NCBI GenBank assembly: GCA_009733575.1
Contig: ML769453.1
Location: 1-64,000 of the forward strand
Origin: Gymnopus androsaceus JB14
Lineage: Eukaryota > Basidiomycota > Agaricomycetes > Agaricales > Omphalotaceae
DNA: 64,000 nucleotides
Direction: 5' to 3'
Shown here piece after piece: positions 4,633-34,604 of this stretch. Under the pieces are notes generated by a model. It was not told where the DNA came from and made no database searches. It saw only the letters and a list, made by a program, of their open reading frames with translations. A program made the translations under genes and the position numbers. Within the stretch, counting starts at the first letter, position 1; each line of letters begins with the position of its first letter.

Positions 4633-4863
4633 GATGGCAGGAGCTACTGCAGGTGACGGTTCAAGAACAAGAAGGATTTAAACCGAAAGAAGTTTTGCTT
4701 CGAATTCGTTACGTGTAACCTCGCTGATCGATGTGTATGTACTTACAGAGCCGGCCATTCGTTCTTGAAGGCAAAAACTGGGCAAGTATTCAGACGCAGT
4801 CCTGAAGTGAACAGTTCGCTGAGCGAGCGCAGTACTTACAAGCCACCACAGAATTTGGCTCTG

Positions 4864-4990: not shown

Positions 4991-4992
4991 TC

Positions 4993-7428: not shown

Positions 7429-8885
7429 ATGCCTTCTCTCATCCGGCAAGTTCATCTTCTCCTCACAGACCCCAAATACTTTTGGTTATTAGCCGTTCTT
7501 GTCGTCTTTGGAGATGCTATTCTCTCAGAACTTATCATTCGTTTCATCTCTTGTCAGTCATAGTCTTTCTCCCTCTAATCCTCACTCAAGTCTACACAGA
7601 TACCGAAATCGACTGGGAAACGTACATGATACAAGTCGAGTTGTATCTCAAAGGTGAACGAGACTACTCCAAAATTTCTGGTCCTACGGGTCCTCTGGTG
7701 TAAGCCACTTGCAAAGTGGGAGCCCGGGCGCGTTGTCTAATTACTTCGTTAGGTATCCTGCTGGCCACGTATACATTTTCCGTCTTCTCCACGACATTAC
7801 AGATGCGGGCAGAAACATACGCTTTGCACAACATCTCTATGCGCTGCTTTACGTGGTATCTGTCTCCTTGACTAGTGCCATCTACGGCAAAGCAGGCAAC
7901 ATACCGAACTGGTTGTTGCTAATCCTTCCATTGAGCAAACGACTGCATTCTCTATACATGCTGCGCCTCTTCAATGACTGTTGGTCCGTTGTGGCAGTTC
8001 AAGCTGCGATATTGGCGTTCCAAAATGAGATGGACGATATAGGCACATTGTTGTTCAGGTATGTTGTACGCGACGTGGATTCTAAGCTCGTTTATCTGAC
8101 ACGCCTACTTACAGCGCCGCTCTCTCTGTCAAAATGTCGATCCTTTTGTATCTGCCAGGACTACTTGTCATTCTAGTGAAACGCAATGGTCTTGTATACA
8201 CTATGCGCAAGATGTTCAATATCTTCGGTATCCAGGCGATGCTCGCGTACCCCTTCCTCCGCGAAGATTGGCACGCTTATGTCCATTCTTCCTTCGACTT
8301 TTCTCGCGTGTTTTTGTACAAGTGGACAGTCAACTGGCGTATGGTTCCGGAGGACACCTTTCTAAGCCAAGGATGGGCAAGAGGCCTCATGGTTGGGCAC
8401 TTGTCGCTGTTAATTCTCTTCGGGCTATCCCGTTGGTGCAAGCAGGATGGTGGAGTATGGGTCGTCTTGGATCGGACTCTGCGACGACCAACACTCCCTG
8501 CTGGAATCGTCCCGGTCACTCCTGATTGTGAGTCTCACCGAGTTTCACTCTTTTCTTACTAATACGCTCCGAGTAGACGTTGCTACGGTCATGTTCACGT
8601 CCAATCTAATCGGTCTTGTATTTGCGAGATCATTGCATTACCAGTTCTACTCATGGTATGCTCAGTCAATACCGTTCTTGGTTTGGAGAACGAAATACCC
8701 AGTGCTTCTTAGGTGTGTGTCTTCGGTTCATTTTCTGTATATTGCCCTAACCAGTCTTCAGGTTATTGCTTATTGGAACGATAGAATATGCTTGGAACGT
8801 TTATCCGTCTACTACGATTTCATCGTCAGCATTACTGGGGGCAAATGCACTTGTATTGGCTGGAGTATGGTTTGCTACCGCATAA
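7429..8885 (+). CDS. ALG3: Dol-P-Man:Man5GlcNAc2-PP-dolichol alpha-1,3-mannosyltransferase
   Basis: ALG3 adds the first lumenal mannose (alpha-1,3) to Man5GlcNAc2-PP-dolichol in the ER, using dolichyl-phosphate mannose. The start ATG at 7429 gives [19 protein letters not shown] followed by a hydrophobic segment. Removing the intron ending at the acceptor CTACACAG yields the family hallmark [18 protein letters not shown]. Next come [17 protein letters not shown] and further membrane segments (for example [26 protein letters not shown]). Introns are inferred near 7553-7599, 7700-7752, 8059-8114, 8527-8576 and 8713-8761. The gene ends LAGVWFATA at 8885, 31 bases before the convergent RRP3 gene. 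About 400 residues, the usual ALG3 size. A broken copy of its 5' end lies at 4864-4990. Confidence 0.92.
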
Positions 8886-8916
8886 CAGTACAAAATACCA
8901 AAAAAAAATGCTTGAA

Positions 8917-10477
8917 TCATCCACGTCGCCCCGATTTTGAATTCCGTTTCTTGGAAGGCATGCCAGCTTCAACCTCATCGTCATCTCTGTCTCTATCGTC
9001 TCCACCACCACCATTGCCGCCCCTCTTTCGTTTACTATTGCTATTCTTTTGTTGCTCCTTGAGCTCGGTGGCTGCAAGACGGCAGGCTTCGTTTGCTCGT
9101 TCTCTGAGCAAGTCTACTTCTTCCTTGTCTGTATCCCATAGATCCATCTTCTTCCCGGTGACTTTTTCAATCCGCTGCACGAGCTCTACATCGTATTGTG
9201 TGACAAGAGTGATAGATTTTCCCGCTCGGCCTGCTCGAGCTGTACGGCCGACACGATGGATATAGTCTTTTGAATGGGTTGGGATATCAAAGTTGATCAC
9301 TATGTCCACTGAAGGGATATCCAGACCTCTGGAAGGGAATAGTTAGGCTACTATTCATGTTTTATTTTGCGATACTCACCGACTGGCAACATCCGTCGCA
9401 ACAAGCACTCGTTGACCGCCGCTTTTGAATTTACCCAGGGCACCTAATCGTTGGCTTTGGTTGAGTTGACCATGAAGAGGTATAGCGGGAAAGCCCAGTG
9501 ATCTCAGAATGATAGCAAGTCTGGTAAAATTCATTAGTCGACGAGTTCAAGATCTTATGGGTACAACATACCTGGCTGCATCGTGCACTGTTCTTGTAAA
9601 GATGATAATCGAATTTTGAGCCAGCGTGTTGGCCAAATAGATCAAATATGTATCCTTGTCCTTCAGCGGCATGAGACAGTAGTATTGAAGCAGCGTAGAA
9701 ACGGTTTGATACCTATGGAGAAAGGTTTAGCTATATCGACCAGCCGCAGAGTATAGAACTTACCTGGAGGATACCTCCACTCGTACGGGATTTGACAAGC
9801 TTGCCCGTTGCAGTTTTGCAACCTTGGTAGTCATTGTCGCGGAGAATAGATATGTGGATCGTTCTGTGGGTATGACTTTGAGAATTTTGTCGATGACTGG
9901 GCCGAAATCCATATCTAGCAAGCGATCAGCTTCATCCAAGACCTGGGGAATCAAAGTTGTTATTATCATCCAAGGAAAGATTAACAGTACGTACCAAGTA
10001 CTTGAGATTCCGTAGGTTGAAACCTTTCGTGTTCTCCAAATGGTCATTTAGTCGTCCAGGCGTGGCCACGATAATATGCGGTTTTTTGGCAAGCGCGACA
10101 GCTTGAGTAGTGATTTCCATCCCTCCTACAATTACCGCACATCGTACACCCATAGCAGAACCCAAAGCCTCGAATTGTTGTGATATTTGGTACGCCAACT
10201 CACGAGTGGGCGCAAGGATGCAAGCAAAAAGTCCTTTAGGCTCATCCCAGAGTTTTTGTAGAATAGGCAGTGCAAATGCAGCAGTTTTACCCGAGCCAGT
10301 CTCAGCGACACCGATGATATCTCGACCTTCCAATGCATATGGAAGCGCTTGAGACTGAATTTCAGTTGGCTGAGTGAATTTGAGTTGTTCTAGAGCCTTT
10401 AGAAGAGGGTCAATCAGACCTAGAGACTGAAAGATTACTGGTTCTGTGGAAGTGCTCGCTTCCTCTGGTGAAGGCAT
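8917..10477 (-). CDS. RRP3: DEAD-box ATP-dependent rRNA helicase (DDX47/Rrp3)
   Basis: A nucleolar helicase for pre-18S rRNA processing. Start [10 protein letters not shown] at 10477. All DEAD-box motifs are present: Q motif [14 protein letters not shown], motif I AETGSGKT, Ia PTRELAYQ, Ib [17 protein letters not shown] (across an intron), [30 protein letters not shown] and [15 protein letters not shown]. The sequence around the Q motif and [15 protein letters not shown] fits Rrp3/DDX47 better than other DEAD-box groups. Introns lie near 9943-9994, 9712-9763, 9521-9571 and 9329-9380. The tail is basic and Gly-rich ([11 protein letters not shown]), as usual for nucleolar helicases. It shares an 89-base promoter region with RPT3. 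Confidence 0.93.
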
Positions 10478-17853: not shown

Positions 17854-18882
17854 ATGATGTCGTCCTTGAGTAAATTATGGCTTGGGTAGGTGGCTTGGGT
17901 TCTATGTCGGAAGCACATTCACTGATTCAACAACAGTCTTCTTGTAGCAATTCTATATGCGCCATTGAGTATAGGAGTTGTTTTTCAAAATGTCACCACA
18001 GATTCTAGTACCCATCCATTAAAAGAAGTGAATGTAACATGGGTGCACGAGAACAACGACACATTTAGTTGGACAGCGCAGGCTACCTTCAATGATGACA
18101 AGTCTTCCAGCTTAATGCCAGTGCCCAATTCAACACAACCATCTGGATTTTTCTTTCTGCCTCTGCCTGTTCCGCCACCAAGGTGAGTTACACACTACTT
18201 ATGTTGAAAAGGTTTTATCTAGAGCTCATTTGTGCCAATGGTATAGAAATGTTACTCTGGAGGCATTGCGGTTTGGCATCTTCAACATTACGTAAGCGAG
18301 GATTACTTTATGAATTAAATTTTTATAGAAATCGAGTACCCTTTCAGCATACCCGACCAAAATTCAACTCAGAATTTTCCAATTCCAGCCGTTGGTTTGA
18401 ATTTCGGACCAGGGCATTCTTCTCATCATGCAACTGTCAGTGTTACACCCACAGGATCTACGACCAGGCAAGTTCAAAAGTACCAAGTTGGATTATATTA
18501 CTTGCTAAGATCCATTGAACCTCGCAGCACTACGATTCCTTTATTGAGCCCGACTTCGAATTCAAATTCAACTTTGTCTTCTGTGACGGGTTCGTCCAAG
18601 TCACATACAGATGTGATCATTGGTGCCGTTGTCGGGTCCGTCGCGTTCCTGCTCATAGCAGGCGTACTAATTTTCCTGTGCCTACGGAATCGGCGTTGTC
18701 GACTTGAGAGGACCGATCCTCCAGAGTTCACAAGAGATAAAATGGTCCGAGAACCATACACCGGTTTCCCTCCATTGCATCAATCAACGACGCGCGATAA
18801 TTTGTCTACTCGTAGCTCACTCTACTCTGATGGCAGTGGCCGGCCGCTGCAATCAGAACCGGTGGACGCATGGGCAATATAA
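17854..18882 (+). CDS. Single-pass membrane protein, array copy 1
   Basis: A type I membrane protein. Exon 1 plus the acceptor AACAACAG gives a signal peptide MSSLSKLWLGLLVAILYAPL. A short ectodomain follows, rich in N-x-S/T sites, with the pattern VNVTWVHENNDTFSWTAQATF, which recalls the beta-sandwich of Kre9/Knh1-like fungal wall proteins (inference). Later exons carry a Ser/Thr linker and then one membrane helix (DVIIGAVVGSVAFLLIAGVL), basic stop-transfer residues RNRRCRLER and a cytosolic tail with DPPEFTRDKMVREPYTGFPP and a C-terminus EPVDAWAI. Exon borders near 18180-18300 are unsure. The tail is nearly identical in all array copies while the ectodomain differs. Function unknown; surface sensing or adhesion is plausible. 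Confidence 0.72.
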
Positions 18883-19149
18883 GGAAGTAACTCATGTCAT
18901 AGTTGGGTTGGGTTGGACGCTTACGCTCAGACTAAATTATTCTTTCTTCCGAGTCACTCCTTTAGATACCCATTATTGTACATAGAATCGATGTACATAT
19001 AGCATGTAAAATATTACCATGGCCTTGACCTGAGGCTTGATTTTGATGGTCAAGTACTCCGACATAAGGAGGTTCACTTAATTGATTCTCGATGCAATGT
19101 CTTGCAACAACAATGAATTAAATAATGTAGAAACCCACTCGGACTAATT

Positions 19150-20975
19150 CTACTTTTTGTTTGGTTGTCCCAGTTCGCTTGAACGGTCGGTAGCGATTTG
19201 AATACAACGAGCTATGGTAGATCTGACCTTTCCATCTTCCAATGCAAGTAGGCCTGCAATCGTACATCCTCTTGGTGCTGAAAAAAAAAACAAAGATTTG
19301 AATCAAAGCTTGAAGATAAAACTATAGAGAGAAGCTCACTCGTTACTGCATCTCTAATTTGCGCATGATGCGGTCCGGCGAGCAGCACCTTGTAATGCTA
19401 ATACGGAATAAGTGGCAAATGAGAATGCGAAAACGTACTCTGCGAAGCTAGTTCCAAGGCTTCCACACGCGAGAGACCCATCAACACACCCCCATCGGTC
19501 ATAGTTTCCTAAAAAAATACATGCAAACGCGGGACCAGAGCCAGAGAGTGCCGTACACACATCGAAATGCTTTTTGTCCAAAATGCGACAACGACCGGTA
19601 GAAGAAAATTTTTTTAGGATGATGGCACTGTCGATTTCCTCAGTGGGAGAGCTGGGGATCGTTGAAACGACGGTCATGCCTAAGCATACTCAGGATCGGG
19701 AAATAAAAGGGAAGGAAAGATTGGAACACCTTGCAAGGGGTATTAGGCATCGCTCGAATCACCTTTGTCGATGGAAGGACCCAACTAGATAGCTGAGAGA
19801 TGGTGACACCAGCAAGTATACTGATGAGCAGCTTTTGGTCCAAGGCTTCCTTCATTCCAGGTTCTGACAACATGGCATGTACTACTTGAGGCTTGCAGTT
19901 GTAAGGACAATATCTTATGAACGATGTCCAGATAGACGTACCACAGTAGGACGACATCCGATTCTTGTACGGCCTGCACGTTCTGGGACACAACAACTTC
20001 GATATTCTGGCCATGACACCCATCGAGGCGAATATACCTTTGAGCTTGACCGTGCTCTCCTCGCGCTTTACACAAGCAATGAAACGAGAGGGAACGGTCT
20101 TATCATCTGGAGATCCAGTGGGAGTTAGTGTTCCAGGCGTATGTGATTCCCATTTCTCGCGATTGCCGTTTGAAAGACGAGATGGAATATCCAGACTGTC
20201 GACTATATCAGATAGAGCTACCACAATAGGACGACATCCGATTCTTGTACGGTCTGCACGTTCTGGGACACAACAATTATGGATATTCTGTCAGGCCTCC
20301 AGAAGCTCCGCAGACCCTCGCCCGAATTAGCGTAAATTAGGACCGGAATCCTTGGCCGTTTTTAGGGTAAAGTAAGTAGGCCTCAAAGCTCAAAGCCTTG
20401 CCCATTATAGCGTAAATTTCGGCCGAGGAGGAGGAATTTTAGAGGTAAGCGTACCTCATGGCTATAAATCACGGCAAGAAATACGAAAAAGGGACCGTTT
20501 AATTCGAAACTCCGGTGTACCGAAGACTATTTAACCCCCAGAAAAACGCGCGCTGCGCGCACCGAAAAATTGAAAGATTTTTGGCGTACTTATGATACAT
20601 CATGATCCGAATTAGCGTAAATGAGGCTGAAATTCTAGGGGCGGAGCTTCTGGGGCCTATTCTGTCCCATCACACCATCGAGACGAATATACCTTTGAGC
20701 TTGACTGCGCTCTCCTCGCGCTTTACACAAGCAATGAAACGAGAGGGAGCGGTCTTATCACCCGGAGATCCAATGGGAGTTAGTGTTCCAGGCGTATGTG
20801 ATTCCCATTTCTCGCGATTGCCGTTTGAAGACGAGATGAGAATATCCAGACTGTCAACGACTCCAAAGTACAGCATACCATAGTACCGCATCCTAGTTGA
20901 TTAGATAAAACAAAGGTTACATGAGAGTTTATTAGATAGAATCAAAGAACCTAGGACGCAAAGTGTACAACCGAT
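19150..20975 (-). pseudogene. P5CR copy A, disrupted
   Basis: Remnant of pyrroline-5-carboxylate reductase, the last enzyme of proline synthesis. The start codon of the functional copy (ATG GGT TAT) reads ATC GGT TGT here (20973-20975). Exon 2 is interrupted by a MITE at 20293-20658. Just after the partial exon, at about 20224, the sequence jumps back to the GTCGACAGTCTGG part of exon 2, so much of exon 2 is present twice (20224-19950 and 20895-20225). The distal part still encodes ALSGSGPAFACIFL and the end of the enzyme, but with extra frame shifts. It cannot encode a normal enzyme. Confidence 0.85.
20293..20658. mobile_element. hAT-like MITE, copy 1
   Basis: A 366-base insertion in P5CR copy A. 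Ends are inverted repeats AGGCCTCCAGAAGCTCCGC and GCGGAGCTTCTGGGGCCT. It is flanked by the 8-base duplication ATTCTGTC (20285-20292 and 20659-20666), which is single in uninterrupted P5CR copies. Three copies of TAGCGTAAAT lie inside. There is no coding capacity. An 8-base target duplication and short TIRs fit a non-autonomous hAT element. Confidence 0.85.
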
Positions 20976-21010
20976 TGCAGTCAAAGATGGGGAAGGAAAA
21001 ATGAAGTCGC

Positions 21011-21355
21011 ATGCTGTTTTGTAAACGGTCGGCTCGACGCGTTCGATGCTCTCATTCAATCCGTCTTTCTCGTCCTATATCTATCCAGTCTCTCAGAAAA
21101 AGGCTGCTCCCATATGTCATTCAACGCGGAAATTCTGAATTTCCGTATGTTCCTATTATGTTTATTTCCTGCTCAAGGAGAGCAATCGTTCCAACTGGGA
21201 CAAGGATGGAGTATCCGAGTCGATAGAGCGTTAAGTTTAAGCCATCGCTTCAGGTGGATTACGAAAAGACAGATTTAGTAATTAGCCATACTGGTTCGAG
21301 TGACGAGTCTATATGTGCGAAATCAGATTGAACATTGAAGGAAGTGATGATCAAG
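21011..21355 (+). pseudogene. Truncated ALG13 fragment 1
   Basis: Matches the first exon and first intron of ALG13 (33972-34310) but is shifted by several single-base indels and ends at GGTTCTGG, where unit 2 begins. It lacks the second and third exons that hold the conserved C-terminal half, so it cannot make the enzyme. Confidence 0.8.
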
Positions 21356-21818
21356 GTTCTGGCCGACGCTGAACACTGCCAAAACACACTGAAAGCAACG
21401 CCATCAACATCTCTGCTGAGGCTGAGTCCTTTCTTTGTTTTTCCCACCAAAAATCCTTCTGGAACATTCTCGTCATGTTCTTGCAATGTAGGACCAGGTT
21501 TCCGGTTTCCATAGATGATGCTAGTTGTGCAGGAAACAGATGAGATGTCATCGACTTTGTGATGATGATGGGTATAGCTACTTATAGGCTATATACCTAC
21601 CAGTACCAGTCGTTGAGGTGGGATCATTGGGCTAACGATCATCACTGGAACACTGAATTCCAATGAAGGCAACGCCAACTTTGTATCAGTGTAACCTCTT
21701 GATATAGCGGTACAAAGTCGTGATGATCCTGATCATGGGCTTTTCAGGATTGATACTTTATGTTCGAGCGTAAAGACTCCCAGCTAGCTTCCCTTCCCCC
21801 GTGCATATCCTTTCCTCC

Positions 21819-22813
21819 ATGCCATCCCCTAATAAACTATGGCTTGGGTAAGTGGCTTGGGTTCTACGAGCTCAGAAACATTCACCAATTCAAGAATAGT
21901 TTTCTTGCAGTAATTTTGTATGCGCCATTGAGATCTACATGCTCCATTAATTTCAGTGTCCCCAATCCTACGGCACCTAACGTGACGGTGTATTGGACAC
22001 GGAATGACACAGACCCGGCTATTTGGGAAGCGTCGGCTTCCTGGAATTCTTCGACTCTTAGTACCAACGAAATCTTCAATGTGCTCAATTCGAATTCAAG
22101 CCAAGGCAACTTTTCACTGTTTGCTCCTTTACCGGGGTACGCGACATTATCTATGTTTAAAGAAATGCTTCAATTCACTACGTGCAACTATTACAGAAAT
22201 CTTACTCTTCACATACAGGGTTTTGAATTCCCTAAGTGAGCATATTCTGTTAATTTCTTGATTTAAAGAATACAGAAGACTTTTAGTAGTGGTATGCGTA
22301 TGCCTAAAGCCATTTCCAATCCCACAACTTTCGAAATACCAGCAGTGATAAGTCCAACACCGCAAGCGACGATTGAACCAGGATCGGGACCGAGCAGGTA
22401 AGTTCACAAAGTTCGAGGTTTCAAAATTATCAACCAAGATTTGAATTTTGAACTTTCGCAGTGCATCCGTTGTCTCACTCCCGAGTTCGAGTTCGAGTTC
22501 GGCTCTAACTTCATCTCCTATCGCGAGTTCGTCCAGGACAGATACAATTATTGGCGCCGTCGTCGGGTCCGTCGCGTTCCTGCTCATAGCAGGCATACTA
22601 CTTTTCCTGTGCCTACGGAATCGGCGCCGTCGACTTGAGAGGACCGACCCCCCAGAGTTCACAAGAGATAAAATGGTCCGGGAACCATACACCGGTTTTC
22701 CTCCAACGCATCAATCTACGACGCGCGATAGATTGTCTACTCGTAGTTCACTCTACTCTGATGACAGTGCCCGGCCGCTGAAATCAGAACTGGTGGACGC
22801 ATGGGCAATATAA
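21819..22813 (+). CDS. Single-pass membrane protein, array copy 2
   Basis: Same build as copy 1. Signal peptide MPSPNKLWLGFLAVILYAPL (across an intron with acceptor AAGAATAG). The ectodomain contains VTVYWTRNDTDPAIWEASAS and many N-x-S/T sites, and is the most different of the array ectodomains. The TM helix DTIIGAVVGSVAFLLIAGIL and tail are almost the same as in the other copies, ending SELVDAWAI. Exon borders between 22140 and 22460 are approximate. It faces the P5CR copy B remnant tail to tail. Confidence 0.72.
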
Positions 22814-23073
22814 CTCGTGTTATAGTTGGGTTGGGCTGGAGGCTTACGCTCATACTAAAATATTCTTTCCTTCCGAGTCACTCCTTAGATACCCATTATT
22901 GTATATAGAATCGATGTACATTCAACACAACATCCATGTATGTAAAATATCACCACTGAGGCTCTGCAGTATTCCGACATAAAGAGGCTTTGGCCCACCC
23001 AAATTTAATTGATCCGCGACACAGTCTTTTACAGCAACAATAAATTAATTGTAGAAACCCACTCGGGCTAATT

Positions 23074-24670
23074 CTACTTTTTGTGTTTGGTTGTCCCAGC
23101 TCGCTTGCACGGTCGGTAGCGATTGGAATACATCGAGCTATGGTAGATCTGACTTTTCCATCTTCCAATGCAAGTAGGCCTGCAATCGTACACCCTCCTG
23201 GTGCTGAAGAAAAGATGTGAATTAAAGCAAGATAAAACAACAAAGAGAAGGTCACTCGCTACTGCATCTCTAATTTGTGCAGGATGCTGTCCAGCTTGCA
23301 GAACCATACGAGCAGCCCCTTGTAATGCTGATATAAAATAAGTAAACTTTACTTGAAACAGCCAGACGAGAAGCGGAAACGTACTCTGCGAAGCTAGTTC
23401 CAACGCTTCCGCGCGAGGGAGACCTATCATCACACCTCCATCGGCCATAGCTTCCAGAAAGATACATGCAAACGCAGGACTAGAGCTAGAGAGTGCAGTA
23501 CACGCGTCGAAATGCTTCTCGTCCAAAATTCGACAACGACCGATAGAAGAAAAGATTTTTAGGATGATGGCACTATCGATTTTCTCAGTGAGAGAGCTGG
23601 TGATCAACTGGTGATCGTTAAAATGACGGTCATGCCTTCGCGAATCTAAGCATAGTTAGGATCGGGAAATAAGAGGGAAGGAAAGATTGAAATACCTTGC
23701 AAGGCGTATTAGGCATCGCTCGAATCACCTTTGTCGATGGAAGGACCCAGCTAGATAACTGAGAGATAGTGACACCAGTACTAGTAAGTATACTGATGAG
23801 CAGCTTTTGGTCCAAGGCTTCCTTCATTCCGAAGATGGCATGTGCTACTTAAGGCTTGCAGCTACAGTATAAGGTCAATATATTATGAACGATATTCAGA
23901 TAGACGTACCACAATAGGACGACATCCGATTCTTGTACGGTCTGCACGTTCTGGGACACAACAATTTGGATATTCTGTCAGGCCTCCAGAAGCTCCCGCA
24001 GACCCTCGCCCGAATTAGCGTAAATTAGGACCCGGAATCCTTGGCCGTTTTTAGGGTAAAGTAAGTAGGCCTCAAAGCTCAAAGCCTTGCCCATTATAGC
24101 GTAAATTCGGCCCGAGGAGGAGGATTTTAGAGGTAAGCGTACCTCATGGCTATAAATCACGGCAAGAAATACGAAAAAGGACCGTTTAATTCGAAACTCC
24201 GGTGTACCGAAGACTATTTAGAACCCCCCAGAAAAACGCGCGCTGCGCGCACCGAAAAATTGAAAGATTTTTGGCGTACTTATGATACATCATGATCCGA
24301 ATTAGCGTAAATGAGGCTGAAATTCTAGGGGCGGAGCTTCTGGGGGCCTATTCTGTCCCATCACACCCATCGAGACGAATATACCTTTGAGTTTGACCGC
24401 GCTCTCCTCGCGCTTTACACAAGCAATGAAACGAGAGGGAGCGGTCTTATCACCCGGAGATCCAATGGGAGTTGCTGTTCCAGGCGTATGTGATTCCCAT
24501 TTCTCGCGATTGCCGTTTGAAAGACGAGATGAGATATCCAGACTGTCAACGACTTATTTAAAGTACAGCAATACCCATAGTACCGCATCCTAGTTGATTA
24601 GATAAACAAGGTTACATGAGAGTTTATTAGATAGAATCAAAGAACCTAGGACGCAAAGTGTACAACCGAT
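23074..24670 (-). pseudogene. P5CR copy B, disrupted
   Basis: A second broken pyrroline-5-carboxylate reductase. The start codon is ATC (24668-24670) as in copy A, exon 2 carries the same MITE at the same site (23980-24349), and the reading frame breaks in several places (for example around 23590-23640, where ACTGGTGATC is duplicated). The 3' exons with SPAFACIFLEA and IAGLLALEDGKVRS are recognisable. Start loss and insertion shared with copy A show that the damage preceded the duplication. Confidence 0.85.
23980..24349. mobile_element. hAT-like MITE, copy 2
   Basis: A 370-base counterpart of the element at 20293-20658, with the same ATTCTGTC duplication (23972-23979 and 24350-24357) and TIRs AGGCCTCCAGAAGCTCCCGC / GCGGAGCTTCTGGGGGCCT. 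The two copies differ mostly by single-base changes in homopolymer runs. It sits at the identical position in P5CR copy B, so it was copied with the unit rather than inserted twice. Confidence 0.85.
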
Positions 24671-24694
24671 TGCAGTCAAAGATGGAAGGAAAAA

Positions 24695-25054
24695 ATGAAG
24701 TCGCATGCTCGTTTTGTAACGGTCGGCTCGACGCGTTTCGATGCTCTCATTCAATCCGTCCTTTCTTCGTCCATATTATCCAGTCTCTCAGAAAAAGGCT
24801 GCTCCCATATTGTCATTCAACGCGGAAATTCTGAATTTCCGTATGTTCCTATATGTTTATTTCCTGCTCAAGGAGAGCAATCGTTCCAACTGGACAAGGA
24901 TGGAGTATCCGAGTCGATAGAGCGTTAAGTTTAAGCCATCGCTTCAGGTGGATTACGAAAAGACAGATTTAGTAATTAGCCATACTGGTACGAGTGACGA
25001 GTCTATGTGCGAAATCAGATTGAACATTGAAGGAAGTGATGATCAAGGTTCTGG
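24695..25054 (+). pseudogene. Truncated ALG13 fragment 2
   Basis: Encodes [18 protein letters not shown], then drifts into an early stop (ESIER). It matches the first exon of ALG13 and ends at the same GGTTCTGG junction as fragment 1. No C-terminal half is present. Confidence 0.8.
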
Positions 25055-25166
25055 CCGACGCTGGAACACTGCCAGAACACACTGAAAGCAACGCCATCAA
25101 TGAAACCTCTTGATATAGCGGTAAATTGTGATGTCTCGCAGCTAGCTTCCCTTCCCTCCTTCCTCC

Positions 25167-26183
25167 ATGTTGTCCCTGCATAAATTATGGCTTGGGTAGG
25201 TAGCTTGGGTTCTATGTCGGAAACACATTCACTGATTCAACAACAGTCTTCTTGTAGCAATTCTATATGCGCCATTGAGATCTACAAGCGTCAAGTTTCT
25301 TGATATTACCGCGATAAATTCTACCGATGCGACAGTAACATGGGAACACGAGCACATGCAACCCTATGATTGGAAAGTGCAGGCTACTTTTGAGGGCCAT
25401 AACCCTTCCGACTTAATGACAGTGCCTAATTCAACACTACCATTTGGATCCACTTTTTTTTTGCCGCTGCCTTCTCAGCCACCACTGTGTGTTACGCATC
25501 TATATTGAAGAGATTCTGTCTAGAGCTCACTGCGCCAATGGTATAGAAATGTTATTCTTGAGGCATTTGGAACCGGGCACGTCGCTGCACAATTTAAGTG
25601 AGCCAGGATTACTCTATGAATTGAAAATTTACAGATTTTTGAGTGCCCTTTCAGCGCCACGGGACCCATTCAAGGTTCGATCCAGAAATTCATAGTTAAC
25701 CCACCAGCTAGTTCAACTATCATTCTCGGAGGACCATCGACATCGATATCGACCAGGCAAGTTCAAAAGTACCAAGTTGGATTAGATCACTTGCTAAGGT
25801 TCATTAAACTTCACAGAGATATTCCTCCAACGGGCCCGACTTCGAGTTCCCTTCCAACTCAGTCCCATGTCGCGGGTTCGTCCAAGTCACACACAGATGT
25901 GATCATTGGCGCCGTCGTCGGGTCCGTCGCGCTCCTGTTCATTGTAGGCATACTACTTTTCCTGTGCCTACGGAATCGGCGTCGTCGACTTGATAGGACC
26001 GATCCCCCAGAGTTCACAAGAGATAAAATGGTCCGGGAACCACACACCGGTTTCCCTCCAACGCATCAATCGACGACGCGTGATAGTTTGTCTACTCTCA
26101 GCTTGTCTGCTCGTAGTTCACTCTACTCTGATGACAGTGGCCGGCCGCTGCGATCAGAACCGGTTGACGCATGGGCAATATGA
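25167..26183 (+). CDS. Single-pass membrane protein, array copy 3
   Basis: Signal peptide MLSLHKLWLGLLVAILYAPL after removing the intron with acceptor AACAACAG. The ectodomain reads SVKFLDITAINSTDATVTWE and PYDWKVQATFEGHNP; later exons give a linker, the membrane helix (DVIIGAVVGSVALLFIVGIL) and the shared tail with a small insertion (SLSTLSLSARSSLYS), ending EPVDAWAI at 26183. An almost identical reverse-complement copy lies at 28363-29379. Ectodomain exon borders (25490-25790) are approximate. Confidence 0.72.
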
Positions 26184-26451
26184 GGAAGTAACTCTTGTTA
26201 TAGTTAGGTTGGTTGGAGGCTTACGCTCATACTAAATTATTCTTTCCTTCCGAGTCACTCCTTTAGATACCTATTATTGTATATAGAATCGATGTACGTA
26301 TAGCATGTAAAATATTACTATGGTCTTGGCCTGAGGCTCTGCTACGTTTGATCTTTGACTGAGGCTTTAGCACCCCAAACTTAACTGATCCTCGATGCAA
26401 TATTTTGCAGCAACAATGAATTAAATAATGTAGAAACCCACTCGGCTAATT

Positions 26452-26722
26452 CTACTTTTTGTTTGGTTGTCCCAGCTCGCTTGCACGGTCGGTAGCGATT
26501 TGAATACATCGAGCTATGGTAGATCTGACCTTTCCATCGTCCAATGAAAGTAGGCCTGCAATCGTACACCCTCCTGGAGCTGAAGAAAAAAAAGATGTGA
26601 ATCGAAGCAAAATAAAACAACAAAGAAAAGCTCACTCGTTACTGCATCTCTAATTTGTGCAGGATGCTGTCCAGCTTGCAGAACCATACGAGCAGCACCT
26701 TGTAATGCTGATACAGAATAAG
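26452..26722 (-). pseudogene. P5CR 3' fragment (copy C)
   Basis: The last exons of P5CR (GAARMVLQAGQHPAQIRDAV, then IAGLL and the C-terminus), cut off at about 26722 in an intron. It is nearly identical to the matching part of copy D (29764-30037). It is probably the same sequence represented twice, as an overlapping contig end. Confidence 0.75.
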
Positions 26723-27005
26723 TTGGAGGCATTATGACGGGTATACGCGTCGCGATAGCTAGCTGCGAGACATTACAATTTACCGTCTTACTTTTGTATA
26801 AATCTCAACCGAGGTTTCTTTGATAATTTTGACGCTGTCTGTTACGGGACGGTCCATTTGGTGCCTCCTTTATCGGTCTATCTATTGCATTTTAAACATT
26901 GGAGAACCAAGAGACTCAGCTACGTTGAGGATATCCACGGGTAGTTGGCGTTGCTTTCAGTAGTGTTTCAGTAGTGTTCCAGTAGGTTCAGTGTCGGCCA
27001 GACCT

Positions 27006-27347
27006 TGATCATCACTTCCTTCAATGTTCAATCTGATTTCGCACAGTTTAGACTCGTACCAGTATGGCTAATTACTAAATCTGCCTTTTCAATAATCCAC
27101 CTGAAGCGATGGCTTGAACTTCCATCACTCTATCGATCCCTATTTTCTCCAGTTGGAACGATTGCTCTCCTTGAGCCAGCCAAAATGAACGTATAGGAAC
27201 ATATGGAAATTCAGAATTTCCGCATTGAATGACAATATTGGAGTAGCCTTTTTCTGAGAGACTGGATGATACGGATGAATAAAAGACGGATTGAATGAGA
27301 GCATCGAAACGCGCCGGCTTAGCGGCGACGGTTACAAAAGCGAGCAT
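27006..27347 (-). pseudogene. Truncated ALG13 fragment 3 (in inverted block)
   Basis: Starts MLAFVTVAAKPARFDALIQS, with an altered GSTR region, and follows the first exon of ALG13 to GFLLKRQI-like missense and the usual GGTTCTGG-type end. Near copy of 30992-31338 on the other strand. Confidence 0.7.
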
Positions 27348-27382
27348 GCCGACTTTGTTTTTTCCTTCCATCTTTGGCTGCA

Positions 27383-28298
27383 ATGGGTTATACACTTAGT
27401 GTCCTAGGTTCTTTGATTCTATCTTAATAAACTCCATGTAACTTTGTTTATTTAATCAACTAGGATGCGGTACTATGGGTATTGCTGTACTTTCGGGAGT
27501 CGTCGACAGTCTGGACATTCCATCTCGTCTTTCAAACGGCAATCGCGAGAAATGGGAATCACATACGCCTGGAACACTAACCCCACTGGATCTCCGGATG
27601 ATAAGACCGTTCCTCTCGTTTTATCGCTTGTGTAAAGCGCGAGGAGAGCGCGGTCAAGCTCAAAGGTATATTCGCCTCGATGGGTGTTATGGGACAGAAT
27701 ATCGAAGTTGTTGTGTCCCACAACGTACAGGCCGTACAAGAATCAGACGTCGTCCTTTTGTGGTACGTCTATCTGGGTATCATCCTAATATATTGTCCTT
27801 ACCAGCTGCAAGCCTCAAATAGCACTTCCACCCTGTCAGAACCCAGAATGAAGGAAGCCTTGAACCAAAAGTGCTCATCAGTACGCTGCTGGTGTCACCA
27901 TCTCTCAGCTGTCTAGCTGGGTCCTTCCATCGACAAAGATGATTCGAGCGATGCCTAAATACACCTTGCAAGGTATTCCAATCTTTCCCTCTTATTTCCG
28001 CCATCCTGAGTATGCTTAGATTCGCGAAGGCATGACCGTCGTTCCAACGATCCCCAGCTCTCCCACTGAGGAAATCGATAGTGCCATCATCCTAAAAATC
28101 TTTTCTTCTATCGGTCGTTGTCGAATTTTGGACGAGAAGCATTTCGACGCGTGTACGGCACTTTCTGGCTCTGGTCCCGCGTTTGCATGTATCTTCTTGG
28201 AAGCTATGGCCGATGGTGTGATGATGGGTCTTCTTCGTGCGGAGGCCTTGGAACTAGCTTCGCAGAGTACGTTTTCGCTTTCTCATCTGGCCGCTTTA
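27383..28298 (+). pseudogene. P5CR 5' part in inverted block, cut by gap
   Basis: Keeps a start (MGYTLSVLG, intron, then GCGTMGIAVLSGVVDSL) but loses one base in TLTPTGSPDD (reading TLTPLDLRM) and others further on, and ends at the run of Ns. It differs from copy D mainly by single-base indels, as expected if both represent the same locus at different sequence quality. Confidence 0.75.
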
Positions 28299-28323
28299 NN
28301 NNNNNNNNNNNNNNNNNNNNNNN
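28299..28323. other. Assembly gap (25 N)
   Basis: Twenty-five undetermined bases join a P5CR exon (+) directly to the tail end of a membrane protein gene (-). In every other unit these two parts are separated by the 3' half of P5CR, so at least several hundred bases are missing or the join is wrong. Confidence 0.98.
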
Positions 28324-28362
28324 AGCTCCCAAACCAACCTAACTATAACAAGAGTTACTTCC

Positions 28363-29379
28363 TCATATTGCCCATGCGTCAACCGGTTCTGATCGCAGCG
28401 GCGGCCACTGTCATCAGAGTAGAGTGAACTACGAGCAGACAAGCTGAGAGTAGACAAACTATCACGCGTCGTCGATTGATGCGTTGGAGGGAAACCGGTG
28501 TGTTGGTTCCCGGACCATTTTATCTCTTGTGAACTCTGGGGATCGGTCCTATCAAGTCGACGACGCCGATTCCGTAGGCACAGGAAAAGTAGTATGCCTA
28601 CAATGAACAGGAGCGCGACGGACCCGACGACGGCGCCAATGATCACATCTGTGTGTGACTTGGACGAACCGCGACATGGGACTGAGTTGGAAGGGAACTC
28701 GAAGTCGGGCCCGTTGGAGGAATATTCTCTGTGAAGTTTAATGAACCTTAGCAAGTGATCTAATCCAACTTGGTACTTTTGAACTTGCCTGGTCGATATC
28801 GATGTCGATGGTCCTCCGAGAATGATAGTTGAACTAGCTGGTGGGTTAACTATGAATTTCTGGATCGAACCTTGAATGGGTCCCGTGGCGCTGAAAGGGC
28901 ACTCAAAAAATCTGTAAATTTTCAATTCATAGAGTAATCCTGGCTCACTTAAATTGTGCAGCGACGTGCCCGGTTCCAAATGCCTCAAGAATAACATTTC
29001 TATACCATTGGCGCAGTGAGCTCTAGACAGAATCTCTTCAATATAGATGCGTAACACACAGTGGTGGCTGAGAAGGCAGCGGCAAAAAAAAAGTGGATCC
29101 AAATGGTAGTGTTGAATTAGGCACTTGTCATTAAGTCGGAAGGGTTATGGCCCTCAAAAGTAGCCTGCACTTTCCAATCATAGGGTTGCATGTGCTCGTG
29201 TTCCCATGTTACTGTCGCATCGGTAGAATTTATCGCGGTAATATCAAGAAACTTGACGCTTGTGATCTCAATGGCGCATATAGAATTGCTACAAGAAGAC
29301 TGTTGTTGAATCAGTGAATGTGTTTCCGACATAGAACCCAAGCTACCTACCCAAGCCATAATTTATGCAGGGACAACAT
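28363..29379 (-). pseudogene. Single-pass membrane protein, inverted near-copy of copy 3
   Basis: Reverse-complement counterpart of 25167-26183, including its ectodomain (SVKFLDITAINSTDATVTWE) and the copy-3-specific tail insertion. Small indels break it: the 5' exon is changed, ATTCGGAACC-type runs differ, and a base is lost in the tail (GRRCDQNR in place of GRPLRSEP), so the normal C-terminus is missing. Probably not an extra gene. Confidence 0.7.
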
Positions 29380-29763
29380 GGAGGAAGGAGGGAAGGGAAG
29401 CTAGCTGCGAGAACATCACAATTTACCGCTATATCAAGAGGTTCATTGATGGCGTTGCTTTCAGTTGTGTCTGGCAGTGTTTCCAGCGTCGGCCAGAACC
29501 TTGATCATCACTTCTTTGGGTTGGGTTGGAGGCTTACGCTCATACTAAATTATTCTTTCCCTTCCGAGTCACTCCTTTAGATACCTATTATTGTATATAG
29601 AATCGATGTACGTATAGCATGTAAATATTACTATGGTCTTGGCCTGAGGCTCTGCTACGTTGATCTCTTGACTGAGCTTTAGCACCCCAAACTTAATGAT
29701 CCTCGATGCAATATTTTGCAGCAACAATGAATTAAATAATGTAGAAACCCACTCGGACTAATT

Positions 29764-30957
29764 CTACTTTTTGTTTGGTTGTCCCAGCTCGCTTGCACGG
29801 TCGGTAGCGATTTGAATACATCGAGCTATGGTAGATCTGACCTTTCCATCGTCCAATGCAAGTAGGCCTGCAATCGTACACCCTCCTGGAGCTGAAAAAA
29901 AAACAAAGATGTGAATCGAAGCAAAATAAAACAACAAAGAAAAGCTCACTCGTTACTGCATCTCTAATTTGTGCAGGATGCTGTCCAGCTTGCAGAACCA
30001 TACGAGCAGCACCTTGTAATGCTGATACAGAATAAGTAAAGCGGCCAGATGAGAAAGCGAAAACGTACTCTGCGAAGCTAGTTCCAAGGCCTCCGCACGA
30101 AGAAGACCCATCATCACACCCATCGGCCATAGCTTCCAAGAAGATACATGCAAACGCGGGACCAGAGCCAGAAAGTGCCGTACACGCGTCGAAATGCTTC
30201 TCGTCCAAAATTCGACAACGACCGATAGAAGAAAAGATTTTTAGGATGATGGCACTATCGATTTCCTCAGTGGGAGAGCTGGGGATCGTTGGAAACGACG
30301 GTCATGCCTTCGCGAATCTAAGCATACTCAGGATGGCGAAATAAGAGGGAAAGATTGGAATACCTTGCAAGGTGTATTAGGCATCGCTCGAATCATCTTT
30401 ATCGATGGAAGGACCCAGCTAGACAGCTGAGAGATGGTGACACCAGCAGGCGTACTGATGAGCAGCTTTTGGTTCAAGGCTTCCTTCATTCTGGGTTCTG
30501 ACAGGGTGGAATGTGCTATTTGAGGCTTGCAGCTGTAAGGACAATATATTATGGATGATACCCAGATAGACGTACCACAAAAGGACGACGTCTGATTCTT
30601 GTACGGCCTGTACGTTGTGGGACACAACAACTTCGATATTCTGTCCCATAACACCCATCGAGGCGAATATACCTTTGAGCTTGACCGCGCTCTCCTCGCG
30701 CTTTACACAAGCGATAAAACGAGAGGGAACGGTCTTATCATCCGGAGATCCAGTGGGAGTTAGTGTTCCAGGCGTATGTGATTCCCATTTCTCGCGATTG
30801 CCGTTTGAAAGACGAGATGGAATGTCCAGACTGTCGACGACTCCCGAAAGTACAGCAATACCCATAGTACCGCATCCTAGTTGATTAAATAAACAAAGTT
30901 ACATGGAGTTTATTAAGATAGAATCAAAGAACCTAGGACACTAAGTGTATAACCCAT
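29764..30957 (-). pseudogene. P5CR copy D, frame-shifted
   Basis: A full-length copy with start MGYTLSVLG, all introns and the stop at 29764. It has one extra base in TVVSTIPSS (frame then stops at PQLSH) and two bases missing in MADGGVMMG. Without these it would encode the same protein as copy E. Either a recent pseudogene or a functional gene with sequencing errors; the second is quite possible given the noise nearby. Confidence 0.7.
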
Positions 30958-30991
30958 TGCAGCCAAAGATGGAAGGAAAAAACAAAGTCGC

Positions 30992-31338
30992 ATGCTCGCT
31001 TTTGTAACCGTCGGCCCGGGCTAAGCCGGCGCGTTTCGATGCTCTCATTCAATCCGTCTTTTATTCATCCGTATCATCCAGTCTCTCAGAAAAAGGCTAC
31101 TCCAATATTGTCATTCAATGCGGAAATTCTGAATTTCCATATGTTCCTATACGTTCATTTTGGCTGGCTCAAGGAGAGCAATCGTTCCAACTGGAGAAAA
31201 ATAGGTATCGATAGAGTGATGGAAGTTCAAGCCATCGCTTCAGGTGGATTATGAAAAGGCAGATTTAGTAATTAGCCATACTGGTACGAGTCTAAACTGT
31301 GCGAAATCAGATTGAACATTGAAGGAAGTGATGATCAA
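30992..31338 (+). pseudogene. Truncated ALG13 fragment 4
   Basis: Begins ATGCTCGCTTTTGTAACCGT. The insertion CCGGGCTAAGCCGG replaces the codons after VTVG and brings a stop. It ends at the standard GGTTCTGG junction, then continues into the leader of the next unit. Confidence 0.8.
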
Positions 31339-31480
31339 GGTTCTGGCCGACACTGGAACCTACTGGAACACTACTGAAACACTACTGAAAGCAACGCCAA
31401 CTTTGATATATCAATGAAACCTCTTGATATAGCGGTAAATTGTAATGTCTCGCAGCTAGCTTCCCTTCCCTCCTTCCTCC

Positions 31481-32450
31481 ATGTCGTCCCTGCATAAATT
31501 ATGGCTCGGGTAGGTAGCTTGGGTTCTATGTCGGAAACACATTCACTGATTTAACCACAGTCTTCTTGTAGCAACTCTATATGCACCATTGAGATCTGCA
31601 GGCCTCATTTTTCAAAATGTCACGGCTACCCCAAATTCTACCGATCTATTGAACATGACAGTAATATGGATACACGACGACAACCCGACCTTTAGTTGGC
31701 AAGCGCTGCCTACCTTTGATCCCCAGCCTTCAGTACCTCCAGCAATTCGCGTGACTAATTCAACACAACCATCCGGATCCTTTTTTCTGCAGCTGCCTTC
31801 TCCGCCACCAATGTGCGTTACACATCTACGTTGAAGAGATTCTGCCTAGAGCTCACTTGTTAATGGTATAGAAATCTTACTCTGAAGGCATCGATCATCG
31901 GTGGACGACTTGATGGGTGAGCGAGAATTACTTTATGAAATAGAAATTTACAGAATTTTGAGTGCCCTTTCAGCACTCTAAATGCAACCACGAGTTTTAC
32001 AATTCCAGCCCTTGATTTAACTTCCGGAGATGGAGCTTCTTCTCATGGTCCAACTGTTAGTACTAGTGTTACACCCGGGCGATCTACGACCAGGTAAGTT
32101 CAAATGTACAAATAGGTTACTTGCTAATATTCATTGAACCTCACAGTCCTACTGCTTCATCCCCGGGTTCGTCCAAGTCACATACAGATGTGATTGTTGG
32201 CGCCGTCGTCGGGTCTGTCGCGTTCCTACTCATAGCAGGCATAGCACTTTTCCTGTGCCTACGGAATCGGCGTCGTCGACTTGAGAGGACCGATCCCCCA
32301 GAGTTCACAAGAGATAAAATGGTCCGGGAACCATATACCGGTTTCACTCTACCGTACCAATCTACGACGCGCGATAGTTTGTCTACTCGTAGTTCACTCT
32401 ATTCTGATGACAGTGGCTGGCCGCTGAAATCAGAATCGGTGGACGCATGA
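31481..32450 (+). CDS. Single-pass membrane protein, array copy 4
   Basis: Signal peptide MSSLHKLWLGLLVATLYAPL (intron, acceptor AACCACAG). The ectodomain reads LIFQNVTATPNSTDLLNMTV, then WIHDDNPTFSWQALPTF, closest to copy 1. It has a shorter linker (HSPTASSPGSSKS), membrane helix DVIVGAVVGSVAFLLIAGIA and the shared tail. The protein ends SESVDA because the codon for W is replaced by a stop (TGA), three residues short of the other copies. It sits next to the only intact P5CR, so it may be the parental copy. Confidence 0.72.
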
Positions 32451-32716
32451 GCAATATGAGGAAGCAACTCGTGTTATAATTGGGTTGGGTTGGAGGCTTA
32501 CGCTCATACTAAATTATTCTTTCCCTTCCGAGTCACTCCTTTAGATACCTATTATTGTATATAGAATCGATGTACACATAGCATGTAAAATATTTCTATG
32601 GCCTTAACCAGGCTTGATTTTCGACATAAAGAGGCTGGCCCCCAAACTTAATGGATTCTCGACGCAGTCTTTTGCAGCAACAATGAATTAATTATAGAAA
32701 CCCACTCGGGCTAATT

Positions 32717-33927
32717 CTACTTTTTGTTTGGTTGTCCCAGCTCGCTTGCACGATCGGTAGCGATTTGAATACAGCGGGCTATGGTAGATCTGACCTTTCC
32801 ATCTTCCAATGCAAGTAGGCCAGCAATCGTACACCCTCCTGGCGCTGAAAAAAAAAACAAAGGTGTAAATCAAAGCAACATAAAACAACAAAGAGAAGCT
32901 CACTCGTTACTGCATCTCTAATTTGCGCAGGATGCTGTCCAGCTTGCAGAACCATACGAGCAGCACCTTGTAATGCTGATACAGAATAAGTAAAATGGCC
33001 AGACGAGAAAGCGAAAACGTACTCTGCGAAGCTAGTTCCAAGGCTTCCGCGCGAGGGAGACCCATCATCACACCTCCATCGGCCATAGCTTCCAAAAAGA
33101 TACATGCAAACGCGGGACCAGAGCCAGAAAGTGCCGTACACGCGTCGAAATGCTTCTCGTCCAAAATTCGACAACGACCAATAGAAGAAAAGATTTTTAG
33201 GATGATAGCACTGTCGATTTCCTCAGTGGGAGAGCTGGGGATCGTTGAAACGACGGTCATGCCTTCGCGAATCTAAGCATAGTTAGGATCGAGAAATAAG
33301 AGGGAAGGAAAGATTGGAATACCTTGCAAGGCGTATTAGGCATCGCTCGAATCACCTTTGTCGATGGAAGGACCCAGCTAGATAGCTGAGAGATGGTGAC
33401 ACCAGCAAGTATACTGATGAGCAACTTTTGGTCCAAGGCTTCCTTCATTCCGGGTTCTGACAAGATGGCATGTGCTACTTGAGGCTTGCAGCTGTAAGGA
33501 CAATATCTTATGAACGATCTCAAGTACATATCCAGATAGACGTACCACAAAAGGACGACGTCTGATTCTTGTACGGCCTGTACGTTGTGGGACACAACAA
33601 CTTCGATATTCTGTCCCATAACACCCATCGAGGCGAATATACCTTTGAGCTTGACCGCGCTCTCCTCGCGCTTTACACAAGCGATAAAACGAGAGGGAAC
33701 GGTCTTATCATCCGGAGATCCAGTGGGAGTTAGTGTTCCAGGCGTATGTGATTCCCATTTCTCGCGATTGCCGTTTGAAAGACGAGATGGAATGTCCAGA
33801 CTGTCGACGACTCCCGAAAGTACAGCAATACCCATAGTACCGCATCCTAGTTGATTAAATAAACAAAGTTACATGGAGTTTATTAAGATAGAATCAAAGA
33901 ACCTAGGACACAAAGTGTATAACCCAT
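32717..33927 (-). CDS. Pyrroline-5-carboxylate reductase (intact copy E)
   Basis: Reduces 1-pyrroline-5-carboxylate to proline with NAD(P)H in the cytosol. The start MGYTLCVLG (33927) is joined by an intron to GCGTMGIAVLSGVVDSL, giving the Rossmann GxGxxG dinucleotide site. Later exons give VVSHNVQAVQESDVVLLW, VIRAMPNTPC, TALSGSGPAFACIFLEAM and the family signature ending TPGGCTIAGLLALEDGKVRS, then a C-terminus ASELGQPNKK. Introns lie near 33494-33547, 33277-33323, 32990-33035 and 32848-32904. No frame break was seen, unlike the other four copies. It shares a 44-base promoter interval with ALG13. Confidence 0.92.
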
Positions 33928-33971: not shown

Positions 33972-34604
33972 ATGCTCGTTTTTGTAACCGTCGGCTCGAC
34001 GCGTTTCGATGCTCTCGTCCAATCCGTCTTTTCTTCGTCCGTATTATCCAGTCTCTCAGAAAAAGGCTACTCCAATATTGTCGTTCAATGCGGAAATTCT
34101 GAATTCCCATATGTTCATTTGCTGGCCCAAGGAGAGCAATCGTTCCAACTGGAGAAGGATGGAGTAGCCATAGAGTGTTGGAAGTTCAAGCCATCGCTAC
34201 AGGTGGAATATGAAGAGGCGGATTTAGTGATTAGCCATGCTGGTACGAGTTTAAATTGTGCGAGATGAGATTGAACATTGAAGGAAGTGATGATCAAAGG
34301 TTCTGGGACTATTCTCGACGTGCTTCGCATGGACAAGCCTTTGATTGTCGTTCCCAATCCAACGCTACTCGATAATCATCAAGAGGAGCTAGCGTCAGCG
34401 CTCGAACAGCTGGGCCATCTCAAATCTTCAACGACTTTGTGAGCCCTCTCCTCCAGCTCTCTGGTTCCAACAACATCTCATTTTTTCTATAGACAATTGG
34501 CCAGAACTATTCAAGACTTTGACCCTTCATCTCTAGTCAAGTTTCCGCCATTCGATGGAAGTAAATTTCAGAATTTGTTGGACGAAGAAATGGGATTTAT
34601 ATGA
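33972..34604 (+). CDS. ALG13: UDP-GlcNAc transferase catalytic subunit ALG13
   Basis: The cytosolic catalytic half of the Alg13/Alg14 enzyme that adds the second GlcNAc to dolichol-PP-GlcNAc. Three exons: [19 protein letters not shown] to DLVISHAG, then [19 protein letters not shown] and [19 protein letters not shown], then [19 protein letters not shown] and an end at 34604. Introns are at about 34242-34298 and 34439-34492. The VTVGSTRFD start, the SHAGSGT loop and NHQEELA are GT28 C-domain hallmarks of Alg13. About 175 residues, the usual length. It is the only complete copy of a gene whose 5' end is repeated through the array. Confidence 0.93.

What the first reader, a model, noticed from the sequence alone, without database searches (positions are those of the whole stretch)
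17854..32450. Tandem family of surface proteins with variable ectodomains and a constant membrane/cytosolic part
Seen in the sequence: four array copies of a type I membrane protein share nearly identical signal peptides, TM helix (GAVVGSVAFLL) and tail (DPPEFTRDKMVREPYTGF), while the short N-glycosylated ectodomains differ strongly (for example VNVTWVHENNDTFSW, VTVYWTRNDTDPAIW, ATVTWEHEHMQPYDW, MTVIWIHDDNPTFSW). Spacing of the V-x-V-x-W...F/W core is kept. Inference: a constant signalling tail with diversifying recognition domains, as in allorecognition or wall-sensing systems. This is the best candidate here for an undescribed system.
Basis: partly seen in the sequence, partly recalled or inferred. 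Interest (0 to 1): 0.75.

Follow-up and report, generated by a model that had tools for sequence, protein, structure and literature searches.

The report
Mushroom surface proteins with swapped modules
A litter-decaying mushroom carries four neighbouring copies of a small cell-surface protein whose outer parts have grown very different while their inner parts were kept alike, probably in large part by DNA exchange between the copies, a layout that would suit a recognition or sensing family but whose job is unproven.

Summary
Four intact five-exon genes (17854-32450) encode type I membrane proteins of 249-265 aa with divergent ectodomains and near-identical membrane and tail parts. Two equal annotated Gymnopus androsaceus JB14 proteins. 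A fifth, inverted copy beside an N gap differs from copy 3 in its gene body only by one-base indels and is probably an assembly artefact.

Each gene was duplicated together with P5CR and Alg13 sequence. All six gene pairs step from diverged to similar DNA just before the membrane segment. Third codon positions of the last exon and the noncoding flank are about equally similar, so tail constancy is mainly recent homogenisation (gene conversion or unequal crossing-over) plus mild purifying selection. Among copies 1, 3 and 4, ectodomain exons differ 1.7-2.4 times as much as the introns between them, the reverse of P5CR in the same units; this fits diversifying selection, although dN/dS is 0.70-0.85, not above 1.

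A related array in the same genome shows the mirror image: shared ectodomain, different tail, step inside the membrane segment. I read this as a fast-evolving, module-swapping surface receptor or sensor family. Ligand, signalling and allorecognition are unshown.

The parts
17854..18882 (+). Copy c1, 265 aa; exons 17854-17885, 17937-18182, 18247-18291, 18348-18467, 18528-18882; intron 4 has a GC donor
   Evidence: gene model; no identical protein among the 3 hits, so predicted here only
21819..22813 (+). Copy c2, 254 aa; exons 21819-21847, 21900-22136, 22197-22235, 22290-22397, 22462-22813; its exon 2 to intron 4 block is much more diverged, introns included, than its 3' end
   Evidence: identical to P0003 (BT96DRAFT_1018557); divergence
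25167..26183 (+). Copy c3, 262 aa; exons 25167-25195, 25247-25486, 25547-25597, 25655-25756, 25817-26183; intron 4 has a GC donor; ectodomain type shared with P0002
   Evidence: no identical protein among the hits
31481..32450 (+). Copy c4, 249 aa; exons 31481-31509, 31561-31812, 31872-31916, 31974-32093, 32147-32450; stop three codons earlier than in the other copies
   Evidence: identical to P0001 (BT96DRAFT_975096)
28324..29514 (-). Inverted near-identical copy of c3 beside an N gap, with seven one-base indels in exons; probable assembly artefact
28299..28323 (.). 25-base N gap
19140..20224 (-). P5CR (pyrroline-5-carboxylate reductase) copy of unit 1
   Evidence: limits approximate
23074..24559 (-). 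P5CR copy of unit 2, interrupted by a repeat-like insert
   Evidence: limits approximate
29753..30880 (-). P5CR copy between c3 and c4
   Evidence: limits approximate
32706..33850 (-). P5CR copy of the last unit; PF14748 (P5CR_dimer) and PF03807 found in its open frames
   Evidence: limits approximate
33972..34604 (+). Complete Alg13-like gene (PF04101 in its first part); only partial copies lie in the earlier units (about 21015, 24713, 27347 inverted, 31029)
18528..18882 (+). Exon 5 of c1: end of the Ser/Thr-rich stalk, TM (GAVVGSVAFLL) and cytosolic tail; the divergence step of c1 against c2, c3, c4 lies at 18587-18590, before the GAVVG codon at 18622

Best explanation
A lineage-specific, fast-evolving branch of a family of single-pass fungal surface proteins: signal peptide, about 100 residues of possible beta-sandwich ectodomain, a short Ser/Thr/Pro-rich stalk, one TM, a 62-70 residue tail. 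Shown: a segment [membrane gene, P5CR, start of Alg13] was tandemly multiplied; all four membrane genes stayed open; the 3' half (TM, tail, flank) is far more alike than the ectodomain block, with a step just before the TM in 6 of 6 pairs; in c1/c3/c4 ectodomain exons outrun the introns between them. Inferred: gene conversion or unequal crossing-over keeps the 3' half alike while selection for variety lets the ectodomain diverge, and the TM-coding stretch serves as a homology seam at which ectodomain and tail modules can be exchanged, as in array C402 of the same genome. Most likely work, inferred only: surface receptors or wall and contact sensors with different outer specificities feeding one inner output.
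For: Intact models. Step in exon 5, 32-73 bases before the GAVVG codon, in 6 of 6 pairs, reached by 0 of 300 shuffles each. c2 against the others: trimmed introns 2-4 differ 0.49-0.55, downstream flank 0.15-0.20, Fisher P<1e-10 in 3 of 3 pairs. c1/c3/c4: codon positions 1+2 before the exon 4/5 junction differ 0.33-0.41, trimmed introns 0.17-0.20, P=0.0005, 0.01, 1.5e-6. Control: P5CR exons 0.033-0.075, introns 0.078-0.104, three units compared. P0002: ectodomain 0.66 like c3 but 0.18-0.48 like the others, tail 0.86-0.92 like all four. C402 genes B/C: 0.12 before and 0.57 after a step 12 residues into the TM, 0 of 300 shuffles. The C-terminal part of gene C's tail recurs in seven further rows at E<=1, about six places on four contigs, one of them weak.
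Against: dN/dS does not exceed 1, and the site test depends on the aligner. Synonymous sites of the ectodomain are raised too (fourfold sites at identical residues 0.25-0.34 against 0.11-0.15 in the tail, c1/c3/c4); with the synonymous rate tied to the introns the fit is 25.7 log units worse than free, so exon-limited exchange or alignment error may share the cause. Short introns may be constrained. Fisher counts on linked sites of three genes are not independent. No strain data, no expression data from this strain, no ligand, no partner. Fold models are weak (mean pLDDT 45 and 52).
Confidence: 0.55

Rival explanations
1. Ordinary tandem gene family with relaxed constraint: duplicates hitchhiked with P5CR, their outer parts drift nearly neutrally, and the tail looks constant only because duplication or conversion is recent.
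For: Ectodomain omega 0.70-0.85, ML 0.85 not different from 1. Exon 5 third positions (0.14-0.24) resemble the noncoding flank (0.11-0.20). Close matches in the genome at this locus only.
Against: Drift alone does not make exons differ 1.7-2.4 times as much as the introns between them while P5CR in the same units shows the reverse; all four frames stay open while the earlier Alg13 copies are partial; W-x(9)-W is kept in 5 of 5 rows.
Confidence: 0.3
2. Cell-wall integrity sensors of the Mid2/WSC type: a mannosylated stalk senses wall stress and the tail recruits a Rho exchange factor.
For: Same overall plan; Mid2 profile at its cut-off for c1 (23.2 against 23.2 bits); the database names P0001 and P0003 'Mid2 domain-containing'.
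Against: Mid2 reaches the cut-off in 1 of 4 proteins and covers stalk and TM only; 0 places over the cut-off in an exon-by-exon genome search; stalk only 44-58 residues. Strong ectodomain divergence between copies is not expected of a generic stress sensor (judgement).
Confidence: 0.15
3. True allorecognition or non-self receptors acting in hyphal fusion or mating.
For: Variable ectodomain, shared tail, tandem array and recombination, as in a known system (passages of PMC12324515 on Dictyostelium tgr genes).
Against: No polymorphism, phenotype or partner gene was tested; the sister array also differs in tails, which an allorecognition reading does not need.
Confidence: 0.1
4. The mosaic is an assembly artefact: collapse in a repeat mixed sequences of different copies.
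For: An N gap and an inverted copy with only one-base indels in its gene body lie inside the array.
Against: Four different, fully open, correctly spliced frames and an independent relative (P0002) with the same architecture and a c3-type ectodomain.
Confidence: 0.05

Closest known systems
TM-protein array on contig C402 of the same genome (gene A; relatives P0008, P0011, and the TM/tail-only hits P0009 and Collybiopsis luxurians P0010)
   Same: Signal peptide, W-containing ectodomain, GAVVGS-like TM; three introns at matching places, all phase 2; profile match over 160 columns
   Different: Much longer tails, ending W-A-x-G-L-T-D-E-x-P in 2 of 3 rows; genes B and C keep the ectodomain and differ in the tail, the reverse of the C71 array
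Mid2/WSC cell-wall sensors of yeast and Wml1/Wml2 of Cryptococcus neoformans
   Same: Single-pass, Ser/Thr-rich extracellular region, cytoplasmic tail (passages of PMC6469404 and PMC9765558)
   Different: Profile cut-off reached by 1 of 4; the stalk is short; no Rom2-binding evidence; tandem divergence of the ectodomain
Dictyostelium tgrB1/tgrC1
   Same: Surface proteins in a locus with intralocus recombination, duplications and mosaic genes (passages of PMC12324515)
   Different: Not compared by sequence here; there recombination events are reported across the gene length, here the dominant step lies at the TM; no recognition phenotype known here
Kre9/KNH domain proteins (PF10342)
   Same: Small secreted beta domain in fungi (recalled)
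   Different: No match in the array proteins at E<=5 nor on contig C71

Membership tests
Mid2 cell-wall sensors (PF04478) | Profile match above the curated cut-off | tested here: not met
   1 of 4 proteins reaches it (c1 23.2/23.2; c3 19.5; c4 15.3; c2 not listed), stalk and TM only; 0 genome places over the cut-off in an exon-by-exon search
Mid2 cell-wall sensors (PF04478) | Signal peptide, type I TM, Ser/Thr-rich stalk, short tail | tested here: met
   TM hydropathy maximum 2.76-2.99; stalk S+T 0.37-0.45 over 44-58 residues, tail 62-70 residues; signal peptide judged from sequence only
Mid2 cell-wall sensors (PF04478) | Tail recruits a Rho1 exchange factor and activates the CWI pathway | not testable with these tools
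   needs an experiment
Kre9/KNH (PF10342) | Profile match | tested here: not met
   not among families up to E=5 for 4 of 4 proteins (the filters drop most matches above about 0.1); three sub-cut-off places in the genome, none on C71
Family of C402 gene A | Homologous ectodomain | tested here: met
   hhalign whole 98.5%; ectodomain alone 74.7%, E 3.2e-6 against a single target with small alignments, so weak by itself
Family of C402 gene A | Same intron positions and phase | tested here: met
   introns after exons 2, 3 and 4, phase 2 in both; C402 model made by hand, its first exon not found
Polymorphic allorecognition receptors | High polymorphism among strains | not testable with these tools
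   one genome held; one relative protein of unknown strain (P0002)
Polymorphic allorecognition receptors | Ig-like ectodomain | tested here: inconclusive
Polymorphic allorecognition receptors | Recombination or conversion in the locus | tested here: met
   steps and noncoding similarity

The most novel reading that the evidence does not exclude
Mushroom-forming fungi run a modular surface-recognition repertoire in which the conserved TM-coding stretch is the seam: conversion and crossing-over at this seam put new ectodomains on an old tail (C71 array) or new tails on an old ectodomain (C402 array), so that recognition and output evolve as separate cassettes, possibly for non-self recognition.
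Probability: 0.15. Interest if true: 0.8.

Novelty: new variant of a known kind. Interest (0 to 1): 0.5.

Why it matters
Agaricomycetes must tell self from non-self on contact, yet few surface receptors for it are known (recalled). This array and its mirror-image relative suggest a way in which such genomes could build receptor variety: split genes at the membrane segment, keep one half alike and let the other diverge. The seam, the ectodomain types and the tail homogenisation make clear predictions for any second strain sequenced with long reads.

Tried and rejected
Equal dN/dS as a refutation: not met, but omega above 1 was not shown either. Kre9/KNH by sequence: no match. NCBIfam: only matches far below the cut-offs. 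PDB by sequence: 4 chains at E<=10, beta-dystroglycan twice (5.5e-5, 2.6e-4), CD4 and EphA2, all on stalk or TM, taken as composition. Structure models too weak to name a fold; VIA and Foldseek hits are a mixed, mostly Ig/FN3-like crowd, none at E<=0.001 in Foldseek. Tail motif F-x-R-D-x-M-V-R as a genome-wide tag: seven places, five of them this array with the inverted copy, against two for the reversed control, so no family-wide motif. Annotated homologues: 3 proteins at E<=0.01 among 2827 candidates; 7 at E<=10 with a profile, only 7997 candidates scored; P0002 is the one new close relative. Searches for print accounts: judged by titles and abstract openings of the listed papers; I saw none describing this family. 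My first notebook entry guessed Rhizoctonia; one search names Gymnopus androsaceus. The output was cut.
Full report
What is there. The window lies in an 83.3 Mb genome of 934 contigs. Two proteins of the array equal, letter for letter, annotated proteins of Gymnopus androsaceus JB14 (P0001 = c4, P0003 = c2), so the window is that fungus or a strain identical at these genes. c1 and c3 have no identical protein among the hits and rest on my models. The four genes share a five-exon plan, all introns phase 2, with a GC donor at intron 4 of c1 and c3. The proteins have a signal peptide, about 100 ectodomain residues, a stalk of 44-58 residues with 37-45% Ser+Thr, one TM, and a tail of 62-70 residues. 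Two tryptophans ten residues apart are kept in all five rows of A1 (the four copies).

Fifth copy. 28365-29359 on the minus strand repeats c3. In the gene body it differs by eight one-base indels, seven in exons, and no substitution; in the longer block by 4 substitutions and 11 one-base indels over 1177 aligned bases. A neighbouring inverted block shows 3 substitutions and 17 indel events over 1351. Both adjoin a 25-base N gap. This is what noisy long-read consensus would give, so I left the copy out of the divergence and selection counts. Against a pure artefact: a third, direct block pair beside it (26204-26723 and 29516-30037) shows 12 substitutions and 7 indels over 517, so the local order is unresolved, and a real, broken duplicate is not excluded.

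Unit. Each gene lies in a repeated segment with P5CR on the other strand and the first part of Alg13; the matching pieces of the units are 77-99% identical. P5CR matches at E<=0.001 are found on this contig only (26 of 26 rows on C71). Alg13 is complete only in the last unit of the window. So the membrane genes multiplied with their neighbours.

Where the copies differ. Windowed distances just before the step are 0.39-0.51 for pairs with c2 and 0.19-0.29 among c1/c3/c4; through TM and tail they are about 0.05-0.13, and 0.01-0.27 in the flank. A change-point test puts the step in exon 5, 32-73 bases before the GAVVG codon, in 6 of 6 pairs, reached by 0 of 300 shuffles each. Shuffling ignores the exon/intron structure, so this shows a step, not its cause. 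The 5' flank groups otherwise: over 300 bases c3-c4 differ 0.08, c1-c2 0.20, all other pairs 0.35-0.38, a further sign of a mosaic locus. For c2 the introns inside the ectodomain block are as diverged as its exons (0.49-0.55 against 0.53-0.56) while the downstream flank differs by 0.15-0.20 (P<1e-10 in 3 of 3 pairs). Selection on protein alone would not raise the introns; conversion or crossing-over in the 3' part would explain it. In c1/c3/c4 the introns (0.17-0.20) are close to the flank (0.11-0.16; P=0.48, 0.025, 0.65), yet codon positions 1+2 before the exon 4/5 junction differ 0.33-0.41 (P=0.0005, 0.01, 1.5e-6). These counts treat linked sites as independent. In the same units P5CR behaves normally, exons below introns in 3 of 3 pairs (three copies compared, unit 2 and the inverted copy left out, exon limits approximate).

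Selection tests. NG86 omega is 0.70-0.85 for the ectodomain and 0.43-0.48 for TM plus tail (c1/c3/c4); with c2, 0.70-0.93 and 0.45-0.54. ML on c1/c3/c4 gives 0.85 (P=0.42 against 1) and 0.60 (P=0.14). With the synonymous rate tied to the introns the ectodomain omega would be 2.6, but that model fits 25.7 log units worse than the free one, so synonymous changes are raised too. Tied to introns or flank, the tail omega is 0.39 (P=5e-7) or 0.59 (P=0.007): mild purifying selection. At identical residues fourfold sites differ 0.25-0.34 in ectodomain plus stalk and 0.11-0.15 in the tail (c1/c3/c4). M2a against M1a: P=0.02 with two aligner settings, one omega at its bound, and P=0.14 with a third. I conclude accelerated exon evolution, with positive selection likely but not proven.

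A relative. P0002 (258 aa, one 1272-base contig, source jgi) is listed as one protein from a contig too short to leave much room for the four introns, so I take it for a transcript (inference). Its ectodomain is c3-like (0.66; others 0.18-0.48), its stalk too (0.75; others 0.31-0.38), but its tail is 0.86 like c3, 0.92 like c4, 0.86 like c1 and c2. Ectodomain types thus outlast the tail's history, as homogenisation predicts.

Wider family and the mirror image. A genome search with c1 gives this locus strongly and many weak matches elsewhere, mostly to stalk and TM (83 rows at E<=10 in all). Contig C402 holds a further tandem array. Its gene A has matching intron places and phase and a profile match to our proteins (98.5% whole; ectodomain alone 74.7%, small alignments). 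Genes B and C of that array are alike through the ectodomain and into the TM (0.12) and unalike after it (0.57), with the step 12 residues into the TM. The C-terminal part of gene C's tail recurs in seven further rows at E<=1, about six places on C310, C104, C129 and C77, the last weak (E 0.195). I looked at three of these loci in one orientation: at C129:15026 the tail follows a TM, and an upstream open frame shows no clear likeness to gene C's ectodomain (not modelled, so whether it is the same gene is inferred); the other two did not show the gene in that orientation and were not followed. So both arrays have a step at or near the TM, in opposite directions.

Verdict. Observation confirmed; interpretation partly supported. 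On present evidence this is not a new kind of system but an apparently undescribed (searches), fast-evolving surface family with a module seam at the membrane segment that any second strain could test.

Noticed in passing
L036 (G000:C402) 2659-6071: Two adjacent TM genes share ectodomain and half the TM but have unlike tails, the reverse of the window's array.
   Followed up: partly
28299-29514 and 26943-28298: Inverted near-identical blocks, differing mostly by one-base indels, on both sides of an N gap: probable misassembly that may mislead annotation.
   Followed up: partly
20200-20660 and 23960-24350: A repeat-like insert of about 0.4 kb sits in or beside the P5CR copies of units 1 and 2; it may be a mobile element.
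   Followed up: no
2339-2476: A 138-base stretch matches its own reverse complement at 85.5%, an imperfect palindrome.
   Followed up: no
1-1086: Open frame on the minus strand with ankyrin repeats, running off the window edge.
   Followed up: no
8414-9262: ALG3-like gene piece, so two N-glycosylation pathway genes (ALG3, Alg13) lie near the array of sequon-rich proteins; probably chance.
   Followed up: no
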